Below, piece by piece: positions 8,627-62,206 of a stretch of 64,000 nucleotides of DNA (its first letter is position 1; each line of letters begins with the position of its first letter). Made by a program: the position numbers and the translations under genes. The notes beneath the pieces were generated by a model that made no database searches, was not told the origin of the DNA, and saw nothing but the letters and a program-made list of their open reading frames with translations. Source of the stretch: Verrucomicrobiota bacterium (GTDB lineage: Bacteria; Verrucomicrobiota; Verrucomicrobiia; Opitutales; UBA953); contig SUVQ01000007.1 of the NCBI GenBank assembly GCA_015061905.1, positions 1 to 64,000 on the forward strand, given 5' to 3'.

Positions 8627-8870
8627 CGTTCCTGCCGCGTTCCCGCTTCGTTTTCGCGCGAAGCGGAAAAAAGAAACCACGAATGGACACGAAGTTTCAC
8701 GAATGATAACGCAAAGATGAAATCGGGATATCTGCGAATATCTGTTTCATCTGTGGCAAAAAATTAACCGCAGACAAAAAAACTTCGCGTCTTAGCGGCT
8801 TTGCGCGAGGTTTTTACACAGCCCTCGAAAGAAGATTTTGCTTCGCCCGATTTTTTCGCGCGAGATCTAT
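8627..8870. repeat. Intergenic gap with dispersed short-period repeats
   Basis: This is part of the 415-bp gap between dnaE and the first PEP-CTERM gene. At about 8673-8812 three modules occur in order. The first has three CACGAA words spaced 10 nt apart. The second contains TCTGCGAATATCTGTTTCAT. The third has GCGTCTTA-like words spaced about 8 nt. The same series recurs at 9857-9996, 54895-55034, 56007-56142 and 56287-56414. Two GGGAACG-type words lie near 8636. No gene was found. Confidence 0.75.
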
Positions 8871-9101
8871 TGGTGTAATTGGTGAAATTTGCGGATTTTT
8901 TTCAAAACGTGCTTGACGGGCACGTTTTTTTTTTTGCGACAATCCATGCTAAGAATTGGGACAAATCGGCGGGAACGCCGCATGTGTTCCGGTTTTTACC
9001 CTCAAAAATAATTTTAACAATCACAATCAAACTTAGTTATTATGAAAAAATACATCACACTCGCGGCGCTCCTCGCCGCCGGAACAACATTCGCTAACGC
9101 G
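8871..9101 (+). repeat. Cassette 5' block, copy 1
   Basis: About 230 bp are nearly identical (I estimate about 95%) to 55041-55272. The block covers the leader, a hairpin or promoter, the start codon and the signal peptide of the PEP-CTERM gene. Homology stops at the signal-peptide cleavage region. Its first 30 nt (GTGTAATTGGTGAAATTTGC and following) also occur alone at 12632, before the EF-hand gene, and in degenerate form near 15011. Confidence 0.85.
8904..8943 (+). promoter_or_regulatory. Promoter or hairpin with poly-T tract, copy 1
   Basis: TTGACG (8913-8918) and GACAAT (8938-8943) are separated by 19 nt that include a run of 11 T. The same stretch folds as AAAACGTGC / GCACGTTTT around the TTGACGG loop, so it can also be read as a terminator with a long T-run. 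Copy 2 at 55084-55113 has 10 T and an 18-nt spacer. A promoter is plausible because the block is conserved upstream of both PEP-CTERM genes. The two readings cannot be separated from sequence. Confidence 0.5.
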
Positions 9102-9737
9102 GACCCTGAGGTATATTCAACTCCTTGGCCTGGAACCGGAGACGGATATACCCGCGGGGGAATGAATGCACAAGAAATAAATCTCGCGGGATTTAGTCTT
9201 TCAGCTGAGGAATATTATATCGGAGACATTACTTTTGCCAAAAATACATACACCGCATCATTTGCCTCATATCTCGCAATCGTAGATTTATCGTCTAATC
9301 TTCTTCTTGGAATCTCTAACGAAGTTTCATCTTTGACGGGACAATCTTTCGGAAATGCTAGTGGTAAAGCTGCGGCAGCTTATTCTTTTTCAAACCTGAC
9401 GCTTTCTGCCGATTCCAGTTATCTTGCCGTCTTTTTGTCGGGAACCACGAGTCTTGCTGTCGGGAGTGAGTTCGATTTTACATCAGATTTGATTACAACG
9501 GTTACAAGTGATAAAAATGGAATTTATTGCACCGCTCTTGATTCCAACAAAAATTCTTATGGATATGCAAAGTCCATTTCGGACGAAGGGGTGATTAGTA
9601 ATTTCACAGACAGCAGTCTTACATATGGAGCAACCTATAAAGTTTCGGTAACTCCTGTTCCCGAGCCGTCGGCATTCGGAATGCTTGCGGGCTTGGGTGC
9701 GCTTGCGCTCGTGGCATCGCGTCGTCGTCGCAAATAA
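9042..9737 (+). CDS. PEP-CTERM surface protein, cassette 1
   Basis: 231 aa. A Sec signal peptide (MKKYITLAALLAAGTTFANA) is followed by about 180 residues rich in Ser/Thr/Asn and predicted to be beta-rich, with no recognised domain. The tail begins PVPEPSAFGMLAGLGALALV and ends SRRRRK, a PEP-CTERM sorting signal: PEP motif, membrane helix, basic end. Proteins of this class are processed by an exosortase and placed at the surface or exported. The leader and tail are almost identical to those at 55213-55887, while the middle is unrelated. The gene body has no GGGAACG copy and is A+T-richer than its neighbours. The start has no Shine-Dalgarno sequence and sits in a conserved A-rich leader. Confidence 0.88.
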   Translation: MKKYITLAALLAAGTTFANADPEVYSTPWPGTGDGYTRGGMNAQEINLAGFSLSAEEYYIGDITFAKNTYTASFASYLAIVDLSSNLLLGISNEVSSLTGQSFGNASGKAAAAYSFSNLTLSADSSYLAVFLSGTTSLAVGSEFDFTSDLITTVTSDKNGIYCTALDSNKNSYGYAKSISDEGVISNFTDSSLTYGATYKVSVTPVPEPSAFGMLAGLGALALVASRRRRK

Positions 9738-10080
9738 TTTCTGTAATATATTAATTCATAGATTATGGTTAGCGTTCCTGCGACTTCGGTTGCGGGAACG
9801 TTTTTTTTTCGCGCCAAGCCGCCAAGCCGCGAAGTTTTTAAAATTTAATAAAAAAAGAAACCACGAATAGACACGAATTTTCACGAATGATAACGCAAAG
9901 ATGAAATCAGGATATCTGCGAATATCTGTTTCATCTGTGGGAAAAATTAACCACAAACCAAAAAAACTTCGCGTCTTAGCGTCTTCGCGCGAGTTTTTTA
10001 CACAGCCCTCGAAAGAAAATTTTGCTTTGCGCGGGAACGTTTTGCGGCGAAGACTTATTTTTGTTCGCACAAACTTCACT
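9659..10080 (+). repeat. Cassette 3' block, copy 1
   Basis: About 420 bp resembling 55809-56218. It covers the PEP-CTERM tail codons, the stop, a conserved spacer (TTTCTGTAATATATTAATTC), the motif-built terminator, and the short-period repeat modules, ending near TTGTTCGCACAAACTTCAC. The first 150 bp are near-identical in the two copies and the rest is more diverged. Confidence 0.82.
9773..9809 (+). terminator. Terminator built from an inverted GGGAACG pair
   Basis: CGTTCCTGCGAC and GTTGCGGGAACG form a 12-bp stem (with G-T pairs) around a TTCG tetraloop, followed by nine or more T. The right arm is the interspersed motif and the left arm a one-base variant of its complement. Confidence 0.88.
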
Positions 10081-10188
10081 TCGCAAGCGACATGAGTGTT
10101 GCTTCTCCCGTTTTTTTTTTCACGTTAAAATCATTCGTGAAAATTCGTGTTTATTCGTGGTTCCTTTTTTCGGCTTTGCGGGAAATGC
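10081..10188. other. Short gap with inverted repeat module
   Basis: It contains a T-run (10111-10120) and the module TCATTCGTGAAAATTCGTGT and following (10131-10170), which is the reverse complement of the CACGAA module found in neighbouring gaps. Nothing else was found before the hemD stop codon. Confidence 0.6.
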
Positions 10189-54787: not shown

Positions 54788-55040
54788 AACCGATTTTATA
54801 GCAAAACCGGGCTTTTCGCGCAATCGCAGAACCGGAAACCTATTTGTGAAAAAACTTTTTTCGCGCCAAGCAACCAAGCCGTAATGTTTTTAGGAAGCAC
54901 GAATGGACACGAAGTTTCACGAATGATTTTTAACGCAAAGAAGAATCAGAATATTTGTGAAAATCTGTTTCATCTGCGGGAAAAATAAACTGCAAAAAAC
55001 TTTGCGTCTTAGCGACTTTGCGTCTTCGCGCGAGATTCTT
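54788..55040. repeat. Intergenic gap with short-period repeats
   Basis: Part of a 425-bp gap. It has CACGAA words with 10-nt spacing, the ATCTGTTTCATCTG module and the GCGTCTTAGC module at 54895-55034, then the cassette 5' block starts. The order is the same as upstream of cassette 1. No gene was found. Confidence 0.75.
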
Positions 55041-55272
55041 TTGTGTAATTGGTGAAATTTGCGGATTTTTTTTCAAAACGTGCTTGACGGGCACGTTTTT
55101 TTTTTTGCGACAATCCGCACTGAAAATTGGGACAAATCGGCGGGAACGTCGCATGCGTTCCGGTTTTTACCCTCAAAAATCATTTTAACAATCACAATCA
55201 AACTTAATCATTATGAAAAAATACATCACACTCGCGGCTCTCCTCGCCGCCGGAACAACATTCGCTAACGCA
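55041..55272 (+). repeat. Cassette 5' block, copy 2
   Basis: Near-identical to 8871-9101, including the GGGAACG copy in the leader (55140) and the signal-peptide codons. Differences are mostly single bases, plus one base in the poly-T tract. Confidence 0.85.
55075..55113 (+). promoter_or_regulatory. Promoter or hairpin with poly-T tract, copy 2
   Basis: TTGACG (55084-55089) and GACAAT (55108-55113) are separated by 18 nt containing 10 T, one fewer than copy 1. The flanking AAAACGTGC / GCACGTTTT hairpin is conserved. Confidence 0.5.
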
Positions 55273-55887
55273 GAGGAGATTCTGCTTACACTTACGACTC
55301 CTGCTGGTAGTAAGCTCGAAAGCGGAAACAGCGGATTCGTATGGTCTGATTCAAGTGTTTCATCTCCGCTCGATTCGTGGAAACTTGAATTTACATTGAC
55401 AGATAAGTCGCTTGAAACAGGGGCGAAGTATCTCTTCGGAACCGAAAAAGATGCTAAAGGAGCTGCGGGCTATGTTCTTCAAACGACGAATGGAAATATT
55501 ACTTTCGGGTATAAGGACGAGGCGGCAGAAATTACCTTTGATTCAGTCGTTGAGGCAAATGTAGGTGTCAGTATTGCACTTTCTTTCGTTTTAGACGTTA
55601 ATGAGGAAGGTGTTTCCCAAGAAAGCGGAATATTTACATTGAAGGTGGGCGAATCTTCGGAAACATATTCCTGGAGTGCTTCTGAGAGCGGAAAAGTGGT
55701 TTCAAACACTCAGTTTGAAGGACGCGATGGTGGCACGCGCCTTTGGACAAATGGTGGGGCCGAAACGTTCTCGGGTATTTCGCTTACGAAATTGGACAAC
55801 AATGTCATCCCTGAGCCGTCGGCGTTCGGAATGCTTGCGGGCTTGGGCGCGCTTGCGTTGGTGGCATCGCGTCGCCGCCGCAAATAA
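55213..55887 (+). CDS. PEP-CTERM surface protein, cassette 2
   Basis: 224 aa. The signal peptide MKKYITLAALLAAGTTFANA is identical to cassette 1. The middle (about residues 21-195, EEILLTLTTPAGSKLESGNS and following) is beta-rich and unrelated to that of cassette 1; it resembles a lectin-like jelly-roll only in general pattern. The tail VIPEPSAFGMLAGLGALALV ... SRRRRK is the same sorting signal. An exosortase, not in this window, should process it. It has no GGGAACG copy in the coding region and is A+T-richer than the surroundings. Confidence 0.88.
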   Translation: MKKYITLAALLAAGTTFANAEEILLTLTTPAGSKLESGNSGFVWSDSSVSSPLDSWKLEFTLTDKSLETGAKYLFGTEKDAKGAAGYVLQTTNGNITFGYKDEAAEITFDSVVEANVGVSIALSFVLDVNEEGVSQESGIFTLKVGESSETYSWSASESGKVVSNTQFEGRDGGTRLWTNGGAETFSGISLTKLDNNVIPEPSAFGMLAGLGALALVASRRRRK

Positions 55888-56218
55888 TTTCTGTAATATA
55901 TTAATTCATAGATTATGGTTAGCGTTCCCGCGGCTCCGGTCGCGGGAACGTTTTTTTTCGCGCAAAGCCGCTAAGTCGCGAAGTTTTTAAAATTTAATTA
56001 AAAAAGAAACCACGAATGGACACGAAGTTTCACGAATGGTTTTAACGTAAAGAAGAAATCAGAATATTTGTGAAAATCTGTTTCATCTGTGGGAAAATAA
56101 ACCGCCAAAAAACTTTGCGTCTTAGCGTCTTCGCACGAGATTTTGAAGCTTGTATTAAGGATAATTTTGCTTTGCACACCAAACGTTATGCGGCGAAAAT
56201 TTCTTTTTGTTCGCACAA
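55809..56218 (+). repeat. Cassette 3' block, copy 2
   Basis: It corresponds to 9659-10080: PEP-CTERM tail, spacer, motif-built terminator and short-period repeats, ending near TTGTTCGCACAAACTTCAC. Confidence 0.82.
55923..55958 (+). terminator. Terminator built from an inverted GGGAACG pair
   Basis: CGTTCCCGCG pairs with CGCGGGAACG, extended by two further pairs around a TCCG loop, and eight T follow. Compared with 9773-9809 the stem is preserved although several bases differ. Confidence 0.92.
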
Positions 56219-56472
56219 ACTTCACCCGTTTTTTTTTTCGCGCAAAGCCGCTAAGTCGCGAAGTTTTTAAAATTTAATTAAAAAAGAAACCACGAATGGA
56301 CACAAAGTTTCACGAATGGTTTTAACGCAAAGAAGAAATCAGAATATTTGCGAGTATCTGTTTCATCTGTGGGAAAATAAACCGCCAAAAAACTTTGCGT
56401 CTTCGCGCGAGATTTTGAAGCTTGTATCAAAGATGATTTTGCTTTGCTCACCAAACGTTATGCGGCGAAAAT
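55951..56472 (+). repeat. Tandem direct repeat, two copies, 280-bp period
   Basis: Positions 55951-56202 and 56231-56472 are near-identical. Both run from TTTTTTTTCGCGCAAAGCCG through the CACGAA, ATCTGTTTCATCTG and GCGTCTT modules to CACCAAACGTTATGCGGCGA. The second copy lacks one 8-nt GCGTCTTA unit. The 676-bp gap between the PEP-CTERM gene and uvrA is filled mainly by this repeat. No gene was found. Confidence 0.85.
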
Positions 56473-56563
56473 TCGTGTTCCTTCGTGGTTTCTTTCCCCG
56501 GTTTTTCAAAATCTTTGCGTTTTTGGCTCGAAAAATGTAGAGATTCCAAAACGCTTAAACACT

Positions 56564-59500
56564 ATGAAAAATTTACCGGAAGCCATTCGGCTGCGCGGAG
56601 TGCGCCAAAATAATTTAAAAGGAATCGACGCGGACGTTCCCGTCGGGAAGCTCGTCGTGGTTACCGGACTTTCCGGGGCGGGTAAATCCTCGCTTGTCTT
56701 TGAAACGCTTCACGCGGAAGGACAGCGCCGCTACGTTGAAACGTTTTCGCCTTACACGCGCCAATTTCTCGAGCTTTTGCCCGAGGCGAGCGTCGACGCG
56801 GTGGAAAATGTGCGCCCGTCGATTGCGATTAAGCAGGGAAATTCCGTGAAAACGTCGCGCTCGACGGTCGGGACGATGACGGAGCTTTGCGATTGGATGA
56901 AAATTTGGTTCGCGCATCACGCCGAGCTTATTGATCCGGCGACGGGAACGCCGCTTCGGGCGTGGTCGCCCGCCACGGTTTGGTCGCATGCGCAGGAACG
57001 CTTTGACGGGGAACGCCTTGTCGTCGCGTTTCTTTTGGAGCGTCCGAAAAAAATACGCTGGCCGGAAATTTTACCGGAGTTCGTTTCGCGCGGGTTTACT
57101 AAAATTTTGGCAGAAAAAGAGCTTTTTGAAATCGACGACTTTCTGCAAAACCCGCAGACGGGAAAAGTCGGAAAAATTTTTGTGGTTGCCGACCGTATCC
57201 GAATTTCGGATACGGAGCGTTCCCGTTTCATCGAAGCGGCGGCATCGGCGATGAAGCTCGGCGGCGGAATTTTATTTCTTTTTAAAAAATGCGGGAACGG
57301 GAATTACGAAGAATGCGGCGCGTTTGCGGACAAACTGGTTTCGCCGAAAACACGCCGGCGTTTTCGCGAAGCGTCTCCGGCACTTTTTTCGTTCAATTCG
57401 CCCGTCGGCGCGTGCCCGCGTTGCCGCGGCTTCGGGCGCGTTATCGAAGTTGACTGGAAAAAAGTGATTCCCGACGAGACGAAAACGCTCGCGGAAGGCG
57501 TGTTTGCTCCGTTTTCCGGGGAAGTTTACGGCGAATCCCAGGCGGACCTGATGCGTGCCTGCCGCCGCAAAAAAATTCCGACAAATGTGCCGTGGAGCAA
57601 GTTGCCCGCCGAAACGCGGGAATACATTCTTGCCGGCGATGCCGATTGGACGGAGGCGGAATGGTCGTGCGGCTGGTATGGCGTGCGTCGATTTTTTTCG
57701 TGGCTTGAAAGCACGTCTTACAAAATGCACGTGCGCGTTTTTCTTTCTCGCTTTCGCGCCTACGTAAAATGTCCGGAATGCGCGGGAACGCGGTTTCGGG
57801 AAGAATCGCTTTGCTGGAAGTGGCGCGGGTTCACGCTCCCGGAATTGTATTCCAAAACCGTCGACGAATTGCTGGAGCTTACGGAGGATTTGCATTTCGC
57901 GACAAGCGAAACTTCCGCGCAGCGGGCGGAGGATGTCGCACTTGTCGAAACGCGCAACCGGCTCTCGTATTTGCGGGAAGTGGGCTTGGGCTATCTGACG
58001 CTTGACCGCCAGTCGCGCACGCTTTCCGGCGGAGAAACGCAGCGCGTGAACCTCACGGCGTGCTTGGGCGCGTCGCTTGCCAACACGCTGTTTATTCTCG
58101 ACGAGCCGAGCGTCGGGCTCCACGCGCGCGACCTCGGGAAAATGGTTTCGATTTTGCGGAGGCTTGTTTCCGGCGGGAACACGGTGGTGGTCGTCGAGCA
58201 CGATGAATCCGTGATGCGCGCGGCGGATTGGCTGATTGAAATCGGACCGAAGCCGGGCGCGGAGGGCGGAGAGCTGGTTTATTCCGGCGTTCCCGAAGGG
58301 ATTTTGAAATGCAAAAATTCCGTAACGGGCGCATGGTTGAGCGGTGCGCGCGTTCCCGCGCTCGCGAGTCCGGAAGCGGTTGTTCGCGGGAAAAAAACAC
58401 CGGAAATCAAACTTGCAAAAGTTTTTGCCCACAATTTGAAAAATTTTTCGGTTTCGTTCCCGATGCGCGCATTAGTCGGGCTTTGCGGCGTTTCCGGTTC
58501 GGGAAAATCGACTTTGCTGAACAATGTGCTCGCGCATTTTGCGGAGGATAAATCGGGCGTTCCCGCGGAAGATGATTTTGAATTGCCGCCGTTTAAATTT
58601 GAATCCGGCGAGCCGATAGCGGAAGTCGTTCTCGTGGACCAGTCTCCCGTTTCAAAAACGCCGCGCTCCAACACCGCACTTTATTCCGGGGTTTGGGAGC
58701 ACATTCGTAATTTACTTTCGGATACGGAAGAAGCGCAACGTCTGGGGCTGGCTTCGTCGCATTTTTCGTTTAACAGCGGCGACGGGCGTTGCCCGCATTG
58801 CGGCGGCGCGGGCTGGGAAGCGGTTGAGATGCAGTTTCTTTCCGACGTCCACGTCCCGTGTCCGGTTTGCGAAGGGCGGCGGTTTCGTCGTGAGGTGCTC
58901 GAATTTCTCTATAACGGGAAAAACGTGGCGGAAATTCTCGACTTTACGGTTTCGGAGGCGAAATCGTTTTTTGCGGGAACGCGAAAAATTGTTGAAAAAT
59001 TGGAGCTTCTCGAAAGTATCGGGCTCGGGTATTTGTCGCTCGGGCAACCTTTGAATACGCTTTCCGGCGGCGAGGCGCAGCGGCTCAAACTCGTTAAATT
59101 TCTTACGTCGATTGCCGCTCCGGAAAAAGGAAAGAAAAAAACGGAGCGCGGGAACGCCGGACGCCTGATTTTGCTGGACGAACCGACAACGGGGCTTCAC
59201 CGCGAAGACGTTTCTTTGCTCATTAAAATTTTGAAAAAACTCGTGGCGGCGGGAAATACGGTGGTCGTCGTCGAGCATCAGACGGATGTTTTGCTTGCCT
59301 GCGATTGGTTGCTTGAACTCGGACCGGAAGCGGGAGAAAAAGGCGGGAAACTCGTGGCGGCGGGAACGCCTTCGCAACTCGCGAACGGGAATACGGCGAC
59401 GGCTCCGTTTTTGCGCGAGGCGCAAAATGCTACGAAGAATTTCGCGCCCGGCTTTGTGCGGAACGCCGTGCCGGCGTCGCCGGAAAATGCCGCAGGGATT

Positions 59501-62206
59501 TCGCTTCGCGGCGTGCGCGAGCACAATTTGAAAAATGTTTCTTTGGAGATTCCGCATCGCGCGCTCACGGTGTTTACGGGCGTTTCCGGTTCGGGAAAAT
59601 CTTCGCTGGCGTTCGACGTGATTTTCGCCGAAGGTCAACGCCGCTTCATGGAATGTATGAGCGCGTATGCGCGTCAGTTCGTGGAGCAAATGCCGCGCCC
59701 CGACGCGGACGTGCTGACGGGGCTTCCGCCGACGGTTGCCATTGAGCAACGCATCACGCGCGGAAGCGCAAAATCCACGGTCGCGACGGTAACGGAAGTC
59801 GCGCAGTATCTGCGCCTTCTATACGCGAGAATCGGCGTGATGCACAATCCGCGCACGGGAACGCCGCTGGTCGCGGGAACGCAGGAGCAGGTGTGCGCGC
59901 GCGTTGCGGAAGTTTTAAAGTCTTGCCGCAAAAACGAAAAACTTTTGCTCGCGGCTCCGCTTATTCGCAATCGAAAAGGTCACCACCAACCGCTTGCAAC
60001 TTGGGCGATTGAACACGGTTATGAAAAATTGCGTATCGACGGAATCATTACGGAATTGAAAAATTTTAAGCCGCTCGATCGTTACAAAGAACACGATATT
60101 GAAGCGGTCGTCGCGGAGATTTCGGTCGCGGATTCCGGCGTGTTGAAAAAGGCGGTTGGAGAAGCATTGCGCCTCGGAAAAGGAATTGCGCTTCTTTTGG
60201 GCGCGCGCGGGAACGCTGTGGAGTGGCTTTCGCGGGAACGCATTGATCCGGAAACCGGAGAGGCTTTTCCGGAGCTTGATCCGAAAAATTTCTCGTGGAA
60301 TTCTCCGCGCGGCTGGTGCCCGGAATGCCACGGGCACGGGCGCGTGGTGGAAGCTTGGGGCGCAGAAGAAGATGCGCTCAACGACGATGCGCTTTCCGAT
60401 AAAGTTTCCCGGAAAATTTGTCCGGTTTGTCGCGGCGAGCGTTTGAATGCGCTTGCTCGCGCCGTTCGCATTTTTACCGACGAAAAAAAATGTGCGGCGG
60501 GAACGTCGTTTTCGCTTCCCGAATTGCTTGCGCTTTCTCCGGCGCAATTGCTTGATGTGCTGGAACATTTGAAACTGAACGCGCGAGACAAAGCCGTTGC
60601 CGCGCGCATCGTGCCGGAAGTGCGTTCCCGCCTGCGCTTCCTCGACGGAGTAGGGCTCGGTTATCTTACGTTGGATCGTGCGAGCAATACGCTTTCCGGC
60701 GGCGAAGCGCAGCGCATCCGGCTTGCGGCGCAACTCGGCTCGAACCTTTCCGGCGCGCTTTACGTGCTCGACGAGCCGAGCATCGGCTTACATCCGCGCG
60801 ATAACGTGCGCCTTATCCGCTCGTTGAAAGATTTGCGCGATCGCGGGAATACGGTGCTGGTTGTTGAGCACGACGAGGAAACGATGCGCGCGGCGGATTA
60901 TATTGTAGACATGGGACCGGGCTCGGGAACACAGGGCGGGGAAATCCTTTTTTCCGGCGCGCCGAAGCAGTTGTTGAAAAATGCGCAGGCAAAAAATTCC
61001 CGCACGGCGAAATTTTTATCGGCGGGAATTGCGCATCCGATGCGCGGCGCGTGGCGAAGCGTCGGGAAAAGCACGACGTTTGTTTCGCTTCGCGGCGCAC
61101 GCTTGCGCAATTTGAAGAATATCGACGTGAAATTTGCGGTCGGGCGGCTGAATGTCGTTTGCGGCGTTTCCGGCGCGGGGAAATCAACACTGGTTTCCGA
61201 TTTGCTTGCGCCGGCTCTTGCCTTTTCCGTATCTAAAAAAATAGATACGCTTACGGGCGAGCGTGCTTTGCGGGAACGCCTTATCGATGATGATTCCGGG
61301 AAAACCGCGTTTCGCGAGTTGCGCGGCGGGAACGTATTTCGGAAGCTGATTGTCGTCGACCAGGAGCCGATAGGAAAAACGTCGCGCTCGACTCCGGCGA
61401 CTTACATCGGCGCGTTTGACATTATCCGGCAGGTTTTTGCGACGCTTCCCGAGGCGCGTATGCGCGGGCTTTCCGCCGGATTTTTTTCGTTTAATACAAA
61501 AGGCGGGCGTTGCGAAACCTGTGCCGGTGCGGGGCGCGTGAAACTCGAAATGAATTTTATGCCGGATACGAGCGTCGTTTGCGAAGATTGCGCGGGAACG
61601 CGCTATTCTCCGGCGGTCGCGGATATTCGCTGGAACGGAAAAAATATCGCGGACGTGCTTGCGATGACGTTTGCGGAAGCGGCGGAGTTTTTCTCGTTTC
61701 ATAAAAAACTGCAGGAAATTTGTGCGCTGATGACGGAATGCGGTTTGGGGTATTTGACGCTCGGGCAGAGCTCGCCGACGCTTTCGGGCGGGGAGTCTCA
61801 GCGTTTGAAACTCGTCAGCGAATTGGTAACGGCGCTCCCGTCGTGGAAGGAACGCATGGGAAAAGCGGGCGCGGGAACGCCGCAGAAAAATTGCTATATT
61901 CTTGAAGAGCCGACAATCGGCTTGCATCAGGCGGACTGCGAAAAGCTTTTGCATTTGCTTCACCGCTTGGCGGACGAAGGGCACACGGTTATTGTGGTCG
62001 AGCATCACGCGGACGTGCTGGCGGAAGCGGATCATATTATTGAAATCGGACCGGAGGGCGGGAACGCCGGCGGTCGCCTGCTTTATCAGGGCGATTTGCC
62101 CGGGCTTGCAAAATTAACGGCGGAAGTTTCGCCCACGGCACCGTTTTTGCCGAAGCTCGGCGGGAACGCGCTTTCCGGTTGCGCAAATGCCGGCGGGGCG
62201 GTTTAA
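56564..62206 (+). CDS. uvrA: Excinuclease UvrA, four-ABC-module (double-length) form
   Basis: 1880 aa from the ATG at 56564; the frame is open upstream through repeat DNA. UvrA recognises DNA lesions in nucleotide excision repair. Four Walker A motifs occur: GLSGAGKSS (about 34), GVSGSGKST (about 641), GVSGSGKSS (about 1005) and GVSGAGKST (about 1533). Four ABC signatures pair with them: LSGGETQR, LSGGEAQR, LSGGEAQR and LSGGESQR (about 487, 832, 1376, 1740). Cys-rich zinc-binding pairs (CPRCRGFG, CPHCGGAG, CPECHGHG, CETCAGAG) are present. A normal UvrA has two modules in about 940 aa, so this is an internal tandem duplication acting as a covalent dimer, as in chlamydiae. All ATPase motifs look intact. 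Confidence 0.95.
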   Translation: MKNLPEAIRLRGVRQNNLKGIDADVPVGKLVVVTGLSGAGKSSLVFETLHAEGQRRYVETFSPYTRQFLELLPEASVDAVENVRPSIAIKQGNSVKTSRSTVGTMTELCDWMKIWFAHHAELIDPATGTPLRAWSPATVWSHAQERFDGERLVVAFLLERPKKIRWPEILPEFVSRGFTKILAEKELFEIDDFLQNPQTGKVGKIFVVADRIRISDTERSRFIEAAASAMKLGGGILFLFKKCGNGNYEECGAFADKLVSPKTRRRFREASPALFSFNSPVGACPRCRGFGRVIEVDWKKVIPDETKTLAEGVFAPFSGEVYGESQADLMRACRRKKIPTNVPWSKLPAETREYILAGDADWTEAEWSCGWYGVRRFFSWLESTSYKMHVRVFLSRFRAYVKCPECAGTRFREESLCWKWRGFTLPELYSKTVDELLELTEDLHFATSETSAQRAEDVALVETRNRLSYLREVGLGYLTLDRQSRTLSGGETQRVNLTACLGASLANTLFILDEPSVGLHARDLGKMVSILRRLVSGGNTVVVVEHDESVMRAADWLIEIGPKPGAEGGELVYSGVPEGILKCKNSVTGAWLSGARVPALASPEAVVRGKKTPEIKLAKVFAHNLKNFSVSFPMRALVGLCGVSGSGKSTLLNNVLAHFAEDKSGVPAEDDFELPPFKFESGEPIAEVVLVDQSPVSKTPRSNTALYSGVWEHIRNLLSDTEEAQRLGLASSHFSFNSGDGRCPHCGGAGWEAVEMQFLSDVHVPCPVCEGRRFRREVLEFLYNGKNVAEILDFTVSEAKSFFAGTRKIVEKLELLESIGLGYLSLGQPLNTLSGGEAQRLKLVKFLTSIAAPEKGKKKTERGNAGRLILLDEPTTGLHREDVSLLIKILKKLVAAGNTVVVVEHQTDVLLACDWLLELGPEAGEKGGKLVAAGTPSQLANGNTATAPFLREAQNATKNFAPGFVRNAVPASPENAAGISLRGVREHNLKNVSLEIPHRALTVFTGVSGSGKSSLAFDVIFAEGQRRFMECMSAYARQFVEQMPRPDADVLTGLPPTVAIEQRITRGSAKSTVATVTEVAQYLRLLYARIGVMHNPRTGTPLVAGTQEQVCARVAEVLKSCRKNEKLLLAAPLIRNRKGHHQPLATWAIEHGYEKLRIDGIITELKNFKPLDRYKEHDIEAVVAEISVADSGVLKKAVGEALRLGKGIALLLGARGNAVEWLSRERIDPETGEAFPELDPKNFSWNSPRGWCPECHGHGRVVEAWGAEEDALNDDALSDKVSRKICPVCRGERLNALARAVRIFTDEKKCAAGTSFSLPELLALSPAQLLDVLEHLKLNARDKAVAARIVPEVRSRLRFLDGVGLGYLTLDRASNTLSGGEAQRIRLAAQLGSNLSGALYVLDEPSIGLHPRDNVRLIRSLKDLRDRGNTVLVVEHDEETMRAADYIVDMGPGSGTQGGEILFSGAPKQLLKNAQAKNSRTAKFLSAGIAHPMRGAWRSVGKSTTFVSLRGARLRNLKNIDVKFAVGRLNVVCGVSGAGKSTLVSDLLAPALAFSVSKKIDTLTGERALRERLIDDDSGKTAFRELRGGNVFRKLIVVDQEPIGKTSRSTPATYIGAFDIIRQVFATLPEARMRGLSAGFFSFNTKGGRCETCAGAGRVKLEMNFMPDTSVVCEDCAGTRYSPAVADIRWNGKNIADVLAMTFAEAAEFFSFHKKLQEICALMTECGLGYLTLGQSSPTLSGGESQRLKLVSELVTALPSWKERMGKAGAGTPQKNCYILEEPTIGLHQADCEKLLHLLHRLADEGHTVIVVEHHADVLAEADHIIEIGPEGGNAGGRLLYQGDLPGLAKLTAEVSPTAPFLPKLGGNALSGCANAGGAV

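What the first reader, a model, noticed from the sequence alone, without database searches (positions are those of the whole stretch)
8871..10080. PEP-CTERM gene cassettes: constant ends, unrelated centre
The genes at 9042 and 55213 share about 230 bp upstream (leader plus signal peptide, about 95% identical) and a 3' block of about 400 bp (sorting tail, terminator, repeats). The roughly 540 bp between are unrelated. This fits a family in which new passengers are shuffled between fixed expression and sorting ends, by recombination in the flanking repeats. Expansion of PEP-CTERM proteins in Verrucomicrobiota is known. A cassette exchange mechanism is inference.
Basis: partly seen in the sequence, partly recalled or inferred. 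Interest (0 to 1): 0.72.

Follow-up and report, generated by a model that had tools for sequence, protein, structure and literature searches.

The report
Surface-protein gene cassettes with swappable centres
In this uncultured gut bacterium at least 17 genes share the same "on-switch plus export signal" at the front and the same "surface-anchor tag plus stop" at the back, while the protein in the middle is different and is replaced wholesale between sister species, so the bacterium appears to plug new surface proteins into ready-made sockets.

Summary
The 9042 and 55213 genes are two of 17 MKKYI-type PEP-CTERM cassettes in this 2.08 Mb Opitutales MAG, which has about 61 PEP-CTERM genes and one exosortase. 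Each cassette has a constant leader plus signal peptide and a constant tail plus terminator. Most centres are unrelated by blastp. One locus keeps both flanks and both constant ends, but its centre is at the shuffled level. Four more keep the upstream side up to the signal-peptide end with another centre. Five lack the cassette, including both window loci. Only 3 of 17 centres have an orthologue in G003, against 21 of 21 flanks. One cassette is 92-99% identical between species whose flanks are about 82%, so cassettes move between species. Centres are low-GC and nearly free of an 8-mer, CGTTCCCG (6,550 genome copies, DNA-uptake-sequence-like), that marks the constant ends. Best reading: homologous recombination in the constant ends swaps passengers; flanking direct repeats and terminators allow whole-cassette gain or loss. 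Transformation is inferred. All genomes are MAGs.

The parts
8662..10175 (+). segment present here and absent at the orthologous site in sister species G003 (cassette plus repeats)
   Evidence: G003 C8 joins the sequence left of 8662 to that right of 10175, where it forms an intact CGTTCCCGC..GCGGGAA hairpin
8667..8843 (+). direct repeat R, left copy of the 9042 cassette
   Evidence: 93% to 9851-10027; genome copies
8871..9041 (+). constant leader; promoter-like TTGACG..T11..GCGACAAT at 8913-8939, CGGGAACG motif at about 8970
9042..9101 (+). constant signal-peptide coding part, MKKYITLAALLAAGTTFANA
   Evidence: 98% DNA identity to 55213-55271; shared by 17 genes
9102..9653 (+). passenger (centre) of 9042; no blastp relative among the cassettes; absent from G003
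9654..9737 (+). constant PEP-CTERM sorting tail
   Evidence: Pfam PF07589 over its cut-off
9738..9815 (+). constant 3' UTR with intrinsic terminator (stem 9771-9802) built from the CGTTCCCG-type motif
9838..10027 (+). direct repeat R, right copy of the 9042 cassette
10130..10170 (-). inverted partial R at the right edge of the inserted segment
54892..55022 (+). direct repeat R, left copy of the 55213 cassette
55041..55212 (+). constant leader of 55213; promoter-like motif 55084-55110
55213..55272 (+). constant signal-peptide coding part of 55213
55273..55803 (+). passenger of 55213; family with C6_38090, C14_52785, C9_22774; predicted concanavalin-like beta-sandwich
55804..55887 (+). constant PEP-CTERM sorting tail of 55213
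55888..55980 (+). constant 3' UTR and terminator of 55213
55987..56416 (+). two further direct copies of R (55987-56144, 56267-56416); G003 has a single R at this site and no cassette

Best explanation
The two window genes belong to a dispersed family of at least 17 surface-protein cassettes. Each has a 5' module (promoter, leader, signal peptide) and a 3' module (exosortase-type PEP-CTERM tail, terminator) shared with the others, and a centre that is replaced as a block. Shown: the same chromosomal locus carries unrelated centres in sister species with the modules kept, whole cassettes are present or absent, and one cassette shares a more recent ancestor between two species than its flanking genes do. 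Inferred: replacement occurs by homologous recombination between the constant modules of a resident and an incoming or second cassette, while whole-cassette gain and loss uses the flanking direct repeats R and terminator hairpins. New centres probably come from other strains or species, possibly by natural transformation, because the constant ends carry a DNA-uptake-sequence-like 8-mer that the centres almost lack. The centres probably act as diverse exported binding or adhesion domains.
For: 17 cassettes. In-situ swap at C8:19370 / G003 C11:367791: 94% from -4 kb to +47, centre at the codon-shuffled level (0.42), about 95% again from the tail. Four upstream-anchored swaps with the boundary at +59 to +63. 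Five loci with cassette absent and flanks adjacent. Centre identities bimodal, 0.91-0.97 or 0.42-0.47. 14 of 17 centres have no orthologue in G003 while 21 of 21 flanks map. C10_5427 cassette 0.92-0.99 against flank about 0.82 to G002. R copies beside cassettes 12 of 14. Motif 6.5/kb in ends, 0.20/kb in centres, centre GC 0.47 vs 0.55.
Against: All genomes are MAGs and only one per species was available. Only one swap has both flanks conserved; in the other four the downstream side is also rearranged. Differential loss of ancestral tandem cassettes could mimic a swap. Leader and terminator similarities are still correlated (Mantel 0.51, p 0.01), though leader and tail are not (0.22, p 0.16). 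ComEC is widespread (10 of 14 controls), so competence is unproven.
Confidence: 0.72

Rival explanations
1. Ordinary old paralogues: one duplicated gene family whose centres evolve very fast while signal peptide and tail are held by selection or homogenised by gene conversion.
For: A few centres are homologous at 30-38% aa; four of 17 match laminin-G and the 55213 family has a concanavalin-like predicted fold, so some centres may share a distant ancestor. Neighbouring cassettes on a contig have the most similar ends.
Against: Untranslated leaders are 91-95% identical beside unalignable centres. At orthologous loci centres are either 0.91-0.97 or at the shuffled level, with nothing between. Gene conversion of the ends cannot make a centre unrelated to its orthologue.
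Confidence: 0.08
2. Differential loss: ancestors carried tandem cassettes at one site; recombination between constant ends deleted different members in each lineage, so no new centre came in.
For: Adjacent cassettes exist (G002 C12:77808 and 78837). It needs only deletion between direct repeats. Missing centres are absent elsewhere in the sister, as loss would predict.
Against: The C10_5427 cassette is far more similar between G000 and G002 than its flanks, which needs transfer. The 9042 segment interrupts a hairpin that is intact in G003, which points to gain.
Confidence: 0.12
3. Assembly artefact: metagenome assembly misjoined contigs inside the repeated ends and made false swaps and false empty sites.
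For: All genomes are MAGs; several contigs of this genome end in PEP-CTERM genes (C1, C7, C14, C17).
Against: Longest exact shared stretches at C8:19370 are 67 bp (5') and 56 bp (3'), short against usual read and k-mer lengths. Centres at swapped or empty loci are not found elsewhere in the other genome, so a misjoin within one genome cannot produce them. The pattern recurs across loci and three species.
Confidence: 0.08

Closest known systems
PEP-CTERM/exosortase (EpsH) surface-protein sorting, Haft et al. 2006 (PMC1569441)
   Same: Signal peptide, diverse centre with little homology, C-terminal PEP motif plus hydrophobic helix plus basic end, many copies per genome, exosortase present; V. 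spinosum has 65. The paper already noted that many members lack orthologues between close species.
   Different: The paper attributes this to frequent gene duplication and loss. Here leader, signal peptide, tail and terminator are constant at the DNA level and centres are replaced between them at fixed loci.
Conserved upstream regulatory DNA of PEP-CTERM genes in proteobacteria (PMC1569441, section 7)
   Same: Shared non-coding DNA ahead of many PEP-CTERM genes.
   Different: There a short sigma-54 type site; here a ~170-bp leader with a sigma-70-like motif that continues into the signal peptide.
DNA uptake sequences of Neisseriaceae (PMC3630211)
   Same: Thousands of copies of a short motif, intragenic copies common, inverted pairs at terminators; genus-specific.
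   Different: Another motif (CGTTCCCG), another phylum, denser (3.1/kb), uptake function untested.
Cassette-type antigenic variation with constant ends, such as Borrelia vls or Neisseria pilin (own knowledge, no paper read)
   Same: Constant expression site with an exchangeable central part.
   Different: Here many expressed loci, unrelated rather than variant centres, no silent archive found, change seen between species and not within a clone.

Membership tests
PEP-CTERM/exosortase substrates | C-terminal PEP motif, hydrophobic helix, basic end | tested here: met
   PF07589 matches all 17; TIGR02595 matches all 17
PEP-CTERM/exosortase substrates | N-terminal signal peptide | tested here: met
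   MKKYITLAALLAAG..ANA in all 17 by inspection; no signal-peptide program was run
PEP-CTERM/exosortase substrates | exosortase in the same genome | tested here: met
   one PF09721 gene, C6:42589-43554
PEP-CTERM/exosortase substrates | tail is processed by the exosortase and the protein reaches the surface | not testable with these tools
   needs an isolate and proteomics
Exchangeable-cassette gene family | more than two copies with constant ends and unrelated centres | tested here: met
   17 copies
Exchangeable-cassette gene family | same locus, both flanks kept, different centre in a relative | tested here: met
   C8:19370 vs G003 C11:367791; one locus with both flanks, four with the upstream flank
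Exchangeable-cassette gene family | exchange seen within a species or clone | not testable with these tools
   one genome per species available
DNA uptake sequence (DUS/USS) system | strongly over-represented short motif on both strands, lineage-specific | tested here: met
   6,550 copies, 3317/3233 by strand, background in other genera
DNA uptake sequence (DUS/USS) system | competence machinery present | tested here: inconclusive
   ComEC present in all 8 genus genomes, which is weak support only
DNA uptake sequence (DUS/USS) system | motif increases DNA uptake or transformation | not testable with these tools
   no isolate

The most novel reading that the evidence does not exclude
The cassettes are a dedicated docking system for foreign surface proteins. 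Their constant ends serve at once as expression/sorting modules, as homology arms, and as carriers of a genus-specific DNA-uptake sequence, so transformed DNA from other species delivers a new centre that is expressed and anchored straight away.
Probability: 0.22. Interest if true: 0.88.

Novelty: new variant of a known kind. Interest (0 to 1): 0.7.

Why it matters
PEP-CTERM proteins have been described since 2006 as unusually diverse and fast-changing, attributed to duplication and loss. Here the turnover is a modular event at fixed chromosomal sites, visible between sister species, with the swapped block bounded by the signal peptide and the sorting tail. If right, it explains how these gut Verrucomicrobiota renew their surface proteome, and it gives a directly testable model linking surface diversity to recombination and perhaps to a new DNA-uptake-sequence system.

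Tried and rejected
Phase variation by slippage of the T tract in the promoter-like spacer was considered (9-11 T, 12 of 17 with 11) but cannot be tested on consensus MAGs. A terminator reading of the leader hairpin (8904-8928) was considered; its arms are not conserved in all copies whereas TTGACG and GCGACAAT mostly are, so a promoter is preferred. AlphaFold of 9042 alone was useless (pLDDT 31). Simple paralogue divergence was rejected on the bimodal identities. Internal shuffling alone was rejected because missing centres are not elsewhere in the sister. Dedicated recombinases or integron-like attC sites were not searched for.

Full report
WHAT IS THERE. The two window genes share a 5' block (94% over 248 bp) and a 3' block (86% over 429 bp) and nothing in between. 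The 3' block consists of the PEP-CTERM tail, a 3' UTR with an intrinsic terminator (14-pair stem, folding z -3.95) and a ~175-bp intergenic repeat, here called R. The 5' block consists of a promoter-like TTGACG-N6-T(9-11)-GCGACAAT motif that is unique to these two genes in the window, an untranslated leader of about 100 bases, and the signal peptide.

GENOME-WIDE. The window is part of contig C12 of a 2.08 Mb genome in 17 contigs. Named relatives found by sequence are mostly Opitutales MAGs, many from ruminant gut, and Candidatus Spyradosoma. The genome has 61 PEP-CTERM places above Pfam's cut-off and one exosortase. Seventeen genes are of the MKKYI type with this tail. Their centres fall into many groups: blastp links only 55213/C6_38090/C14_52785, C10_59873/C13_30599 and, marginally, C10_5427. 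Four of 17 match the laminin-G/concanavalin Pfam model, and the 55213 family is predicted as a concanavalin-like beta-sandwich (pLDDT 72, weak TM scores of about 0.4-0.5). Some centres may therefore share a fold; 'unrelated' here means unrelated by sequence.

SISTER-SPECIES TEST. Outcome for the 17 loci. Centre kept at 3: C15_47853, C6_38090, C12_105281 (0.91-0.97 nt). Centre replaced with both flanks kept at 1: C8_19370. Centre replaced with the upstream flank kept at 4: C3_158683, C10_291749, C12_113189, C10_5427. Cassette absent with flanks adjacent at 5: C12_9042, C12_55213, C7_35753, C15_31359, C2_10880. Flanks rearranged at 4: C10_59873, C10_65098, C13_30599, C14_52785. At C8 the alignment runs at 94.3% for 4 kb into nucleotide +47 of the gene, falls to the codon-shuffled level for the centre, and resumes at about 95% at the tail. 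In G002 the corresponding upstream flank carries a third centre. The two swapped centres have no blastp relation (best E 7.4).

TURNOVER, NOT DRIFT. Centre identities are either 0.91-0.97 or 0.42-0.47, the latter close to a codon-shuffled null of 0.39-0.45. Fourteen G000 centres have no close copy anywhere in G003, and six G003 centres have none in G000 apart from a 63-aa remnant, whereas each of 21 flank probes maps uniquely at 89-98% (Fisher p 7e-8). The C10_5427 cassette is 0.92-0.99 identical to G002 from about -360 through most of the gene, while the upstream genes are about 0.82. The cassette therefore shares a more recent ancestor than its surroundings, best explained by transfer between species. 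One centre (G002 C20_172125, G003 C1_46848) is 0.89-0.97 identical in different immediate flanks.

JUNCTIONS OF WHOLE-CASSETTE GAIN OR LOSS. At 9042 the sister has the two arms of a CGTTCCCGC..GCGGGAA hairpin next to each other (folds at -15.4 kcal/mol); in the window the arms are separated by the 1.5-kb segment 8662-10175, whose edges are inverted copies of R sequence. The most economical reading is a gain in this lineage. At 55213 the sister has one R where the window has R, cassette, R, R, as expected from recombination between direct repeats in either direction. At C2_10880 both edges lie in terminator right arms, GGGAACGTTTTTTTT. C7 and C15_31359 are less clean. Of 14 full-length R copies in the genome, 12 lie beside cassettes and five cassettes are bracketed. 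Nine of 17 cassettes sit at points where G000 and G003 lose flank adjacency, whereas the 43 kb between the two window cassettes keep length and end points.

THE 8-MER. CGTTCCCG is the commonest 8-mer of the window (218 copies), with 6,550 genome copies split evenly between strands against 85 for the reversed control. It is iterated in six of eight genus members, weaker in two, and at background in other genera. It is common inside genes (3.4/kb) and forms terminator stems. In cassettes the constant ends carry 6.5/kb and the centres 0.20/kb (2 seen, 33.6 expected, p 1.6e-12). Other PEP-CTERM genes of similar GC carry 2.2/kb, so composition alone does not explain it. Thirteen of 17 cassettes have the motif in both ends and none in the centre. 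This is the distribution expected if centres are recent or foreign and the ends resident. DUS in Neisseriaceae have similar genomic habits (PMC3630211). An uptake function here is untested.

MECHANISM. Shown: modular replacement between species, presence or absence of whole cassettes, movement between species. Inferred: homologous recombination in the constant ends for swaps, recombination in R or terminators for gain and loss, foreign DNA as source, transformation as route. The product is inferred to be a set of exported domains handled by the exosortase; binding or adhesion is a guess from the laminin-G-like centres.

COMPARISON. The proteins are PEP-CTERM substrates by all features that could be tested. 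The cassette layout and in-situ replacement were not found in the papers searched, though Haft et al. 2006 already described fast turnover of PEP-CTERM sets and a conserved upstream site in proteobacteria. Hence: a new variant of a known kind.

LIMITS. All comparisons use MAGs, one per species. Exact shared stretches around C8:19370 are at most 67 bp, which makes misassembly there unlikely but not impossible; only C10_59873/C10_65098 share 172 bp. Differential loss of ancestral tandem cassettes cannot be fully excluded.

Noticed in passing
whole window, e.g. 8640, 8970, 9772-9801; genome-wide: 8-mer CGTTCCCG: 218 copies in 64 kb and 6,550 in the genome, strand-symmetric, genus-specific, also forming terminator stems; looks like a DNA uptake sequence, in a phylum where none was found in the papers searched.
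   Followed up: partly
8913-8939 and 55084-55110; other cassettes: T tract of 9-11 bases between the -35-like and -10-like boxes of the cassette promoter; a possible slippage switch that could be tested with reads.
   Followed up: no
8667-8843, 9838-10027, 54892-55022, 55987-56416: Repeat R (~175 bp): 14 full-length genome copies, 12 beside cassettes, plus many partial ~41-bp copies elsewhere, several near other PEP-CTERM genes.
   Followed up: partly
G000 contigs C1, C7, C14, C17 at their ends (L083, L085, L109, L086): Several contigs of the assembly begin or end inside or next to PEP-CTERM genes, as expected where repeats break assembly.
   Followed up: no
L083, L093, L095, L116, L121, L122 (MKNTLLITT-type genes) and L087, L096, L120, L124 (MKTSKFFFSTL-type genes): Other PEP-CTERM genes fall into further signal-peptide types that may be separate cassette families.
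   Followed up: no
window 56531-62203: Double-length UvrA-like protein of 1,891 aa directly downstream of the 55213 cassette, with UvrA interaction and DNA-binding domains.
   Followed up: no
L103:2048-2236 (G000 C10, minus strand): A 63-aa stretch 78% identical to a G003 passenger (C9:84712), apparently a cassette remnant.
   Followed up: no
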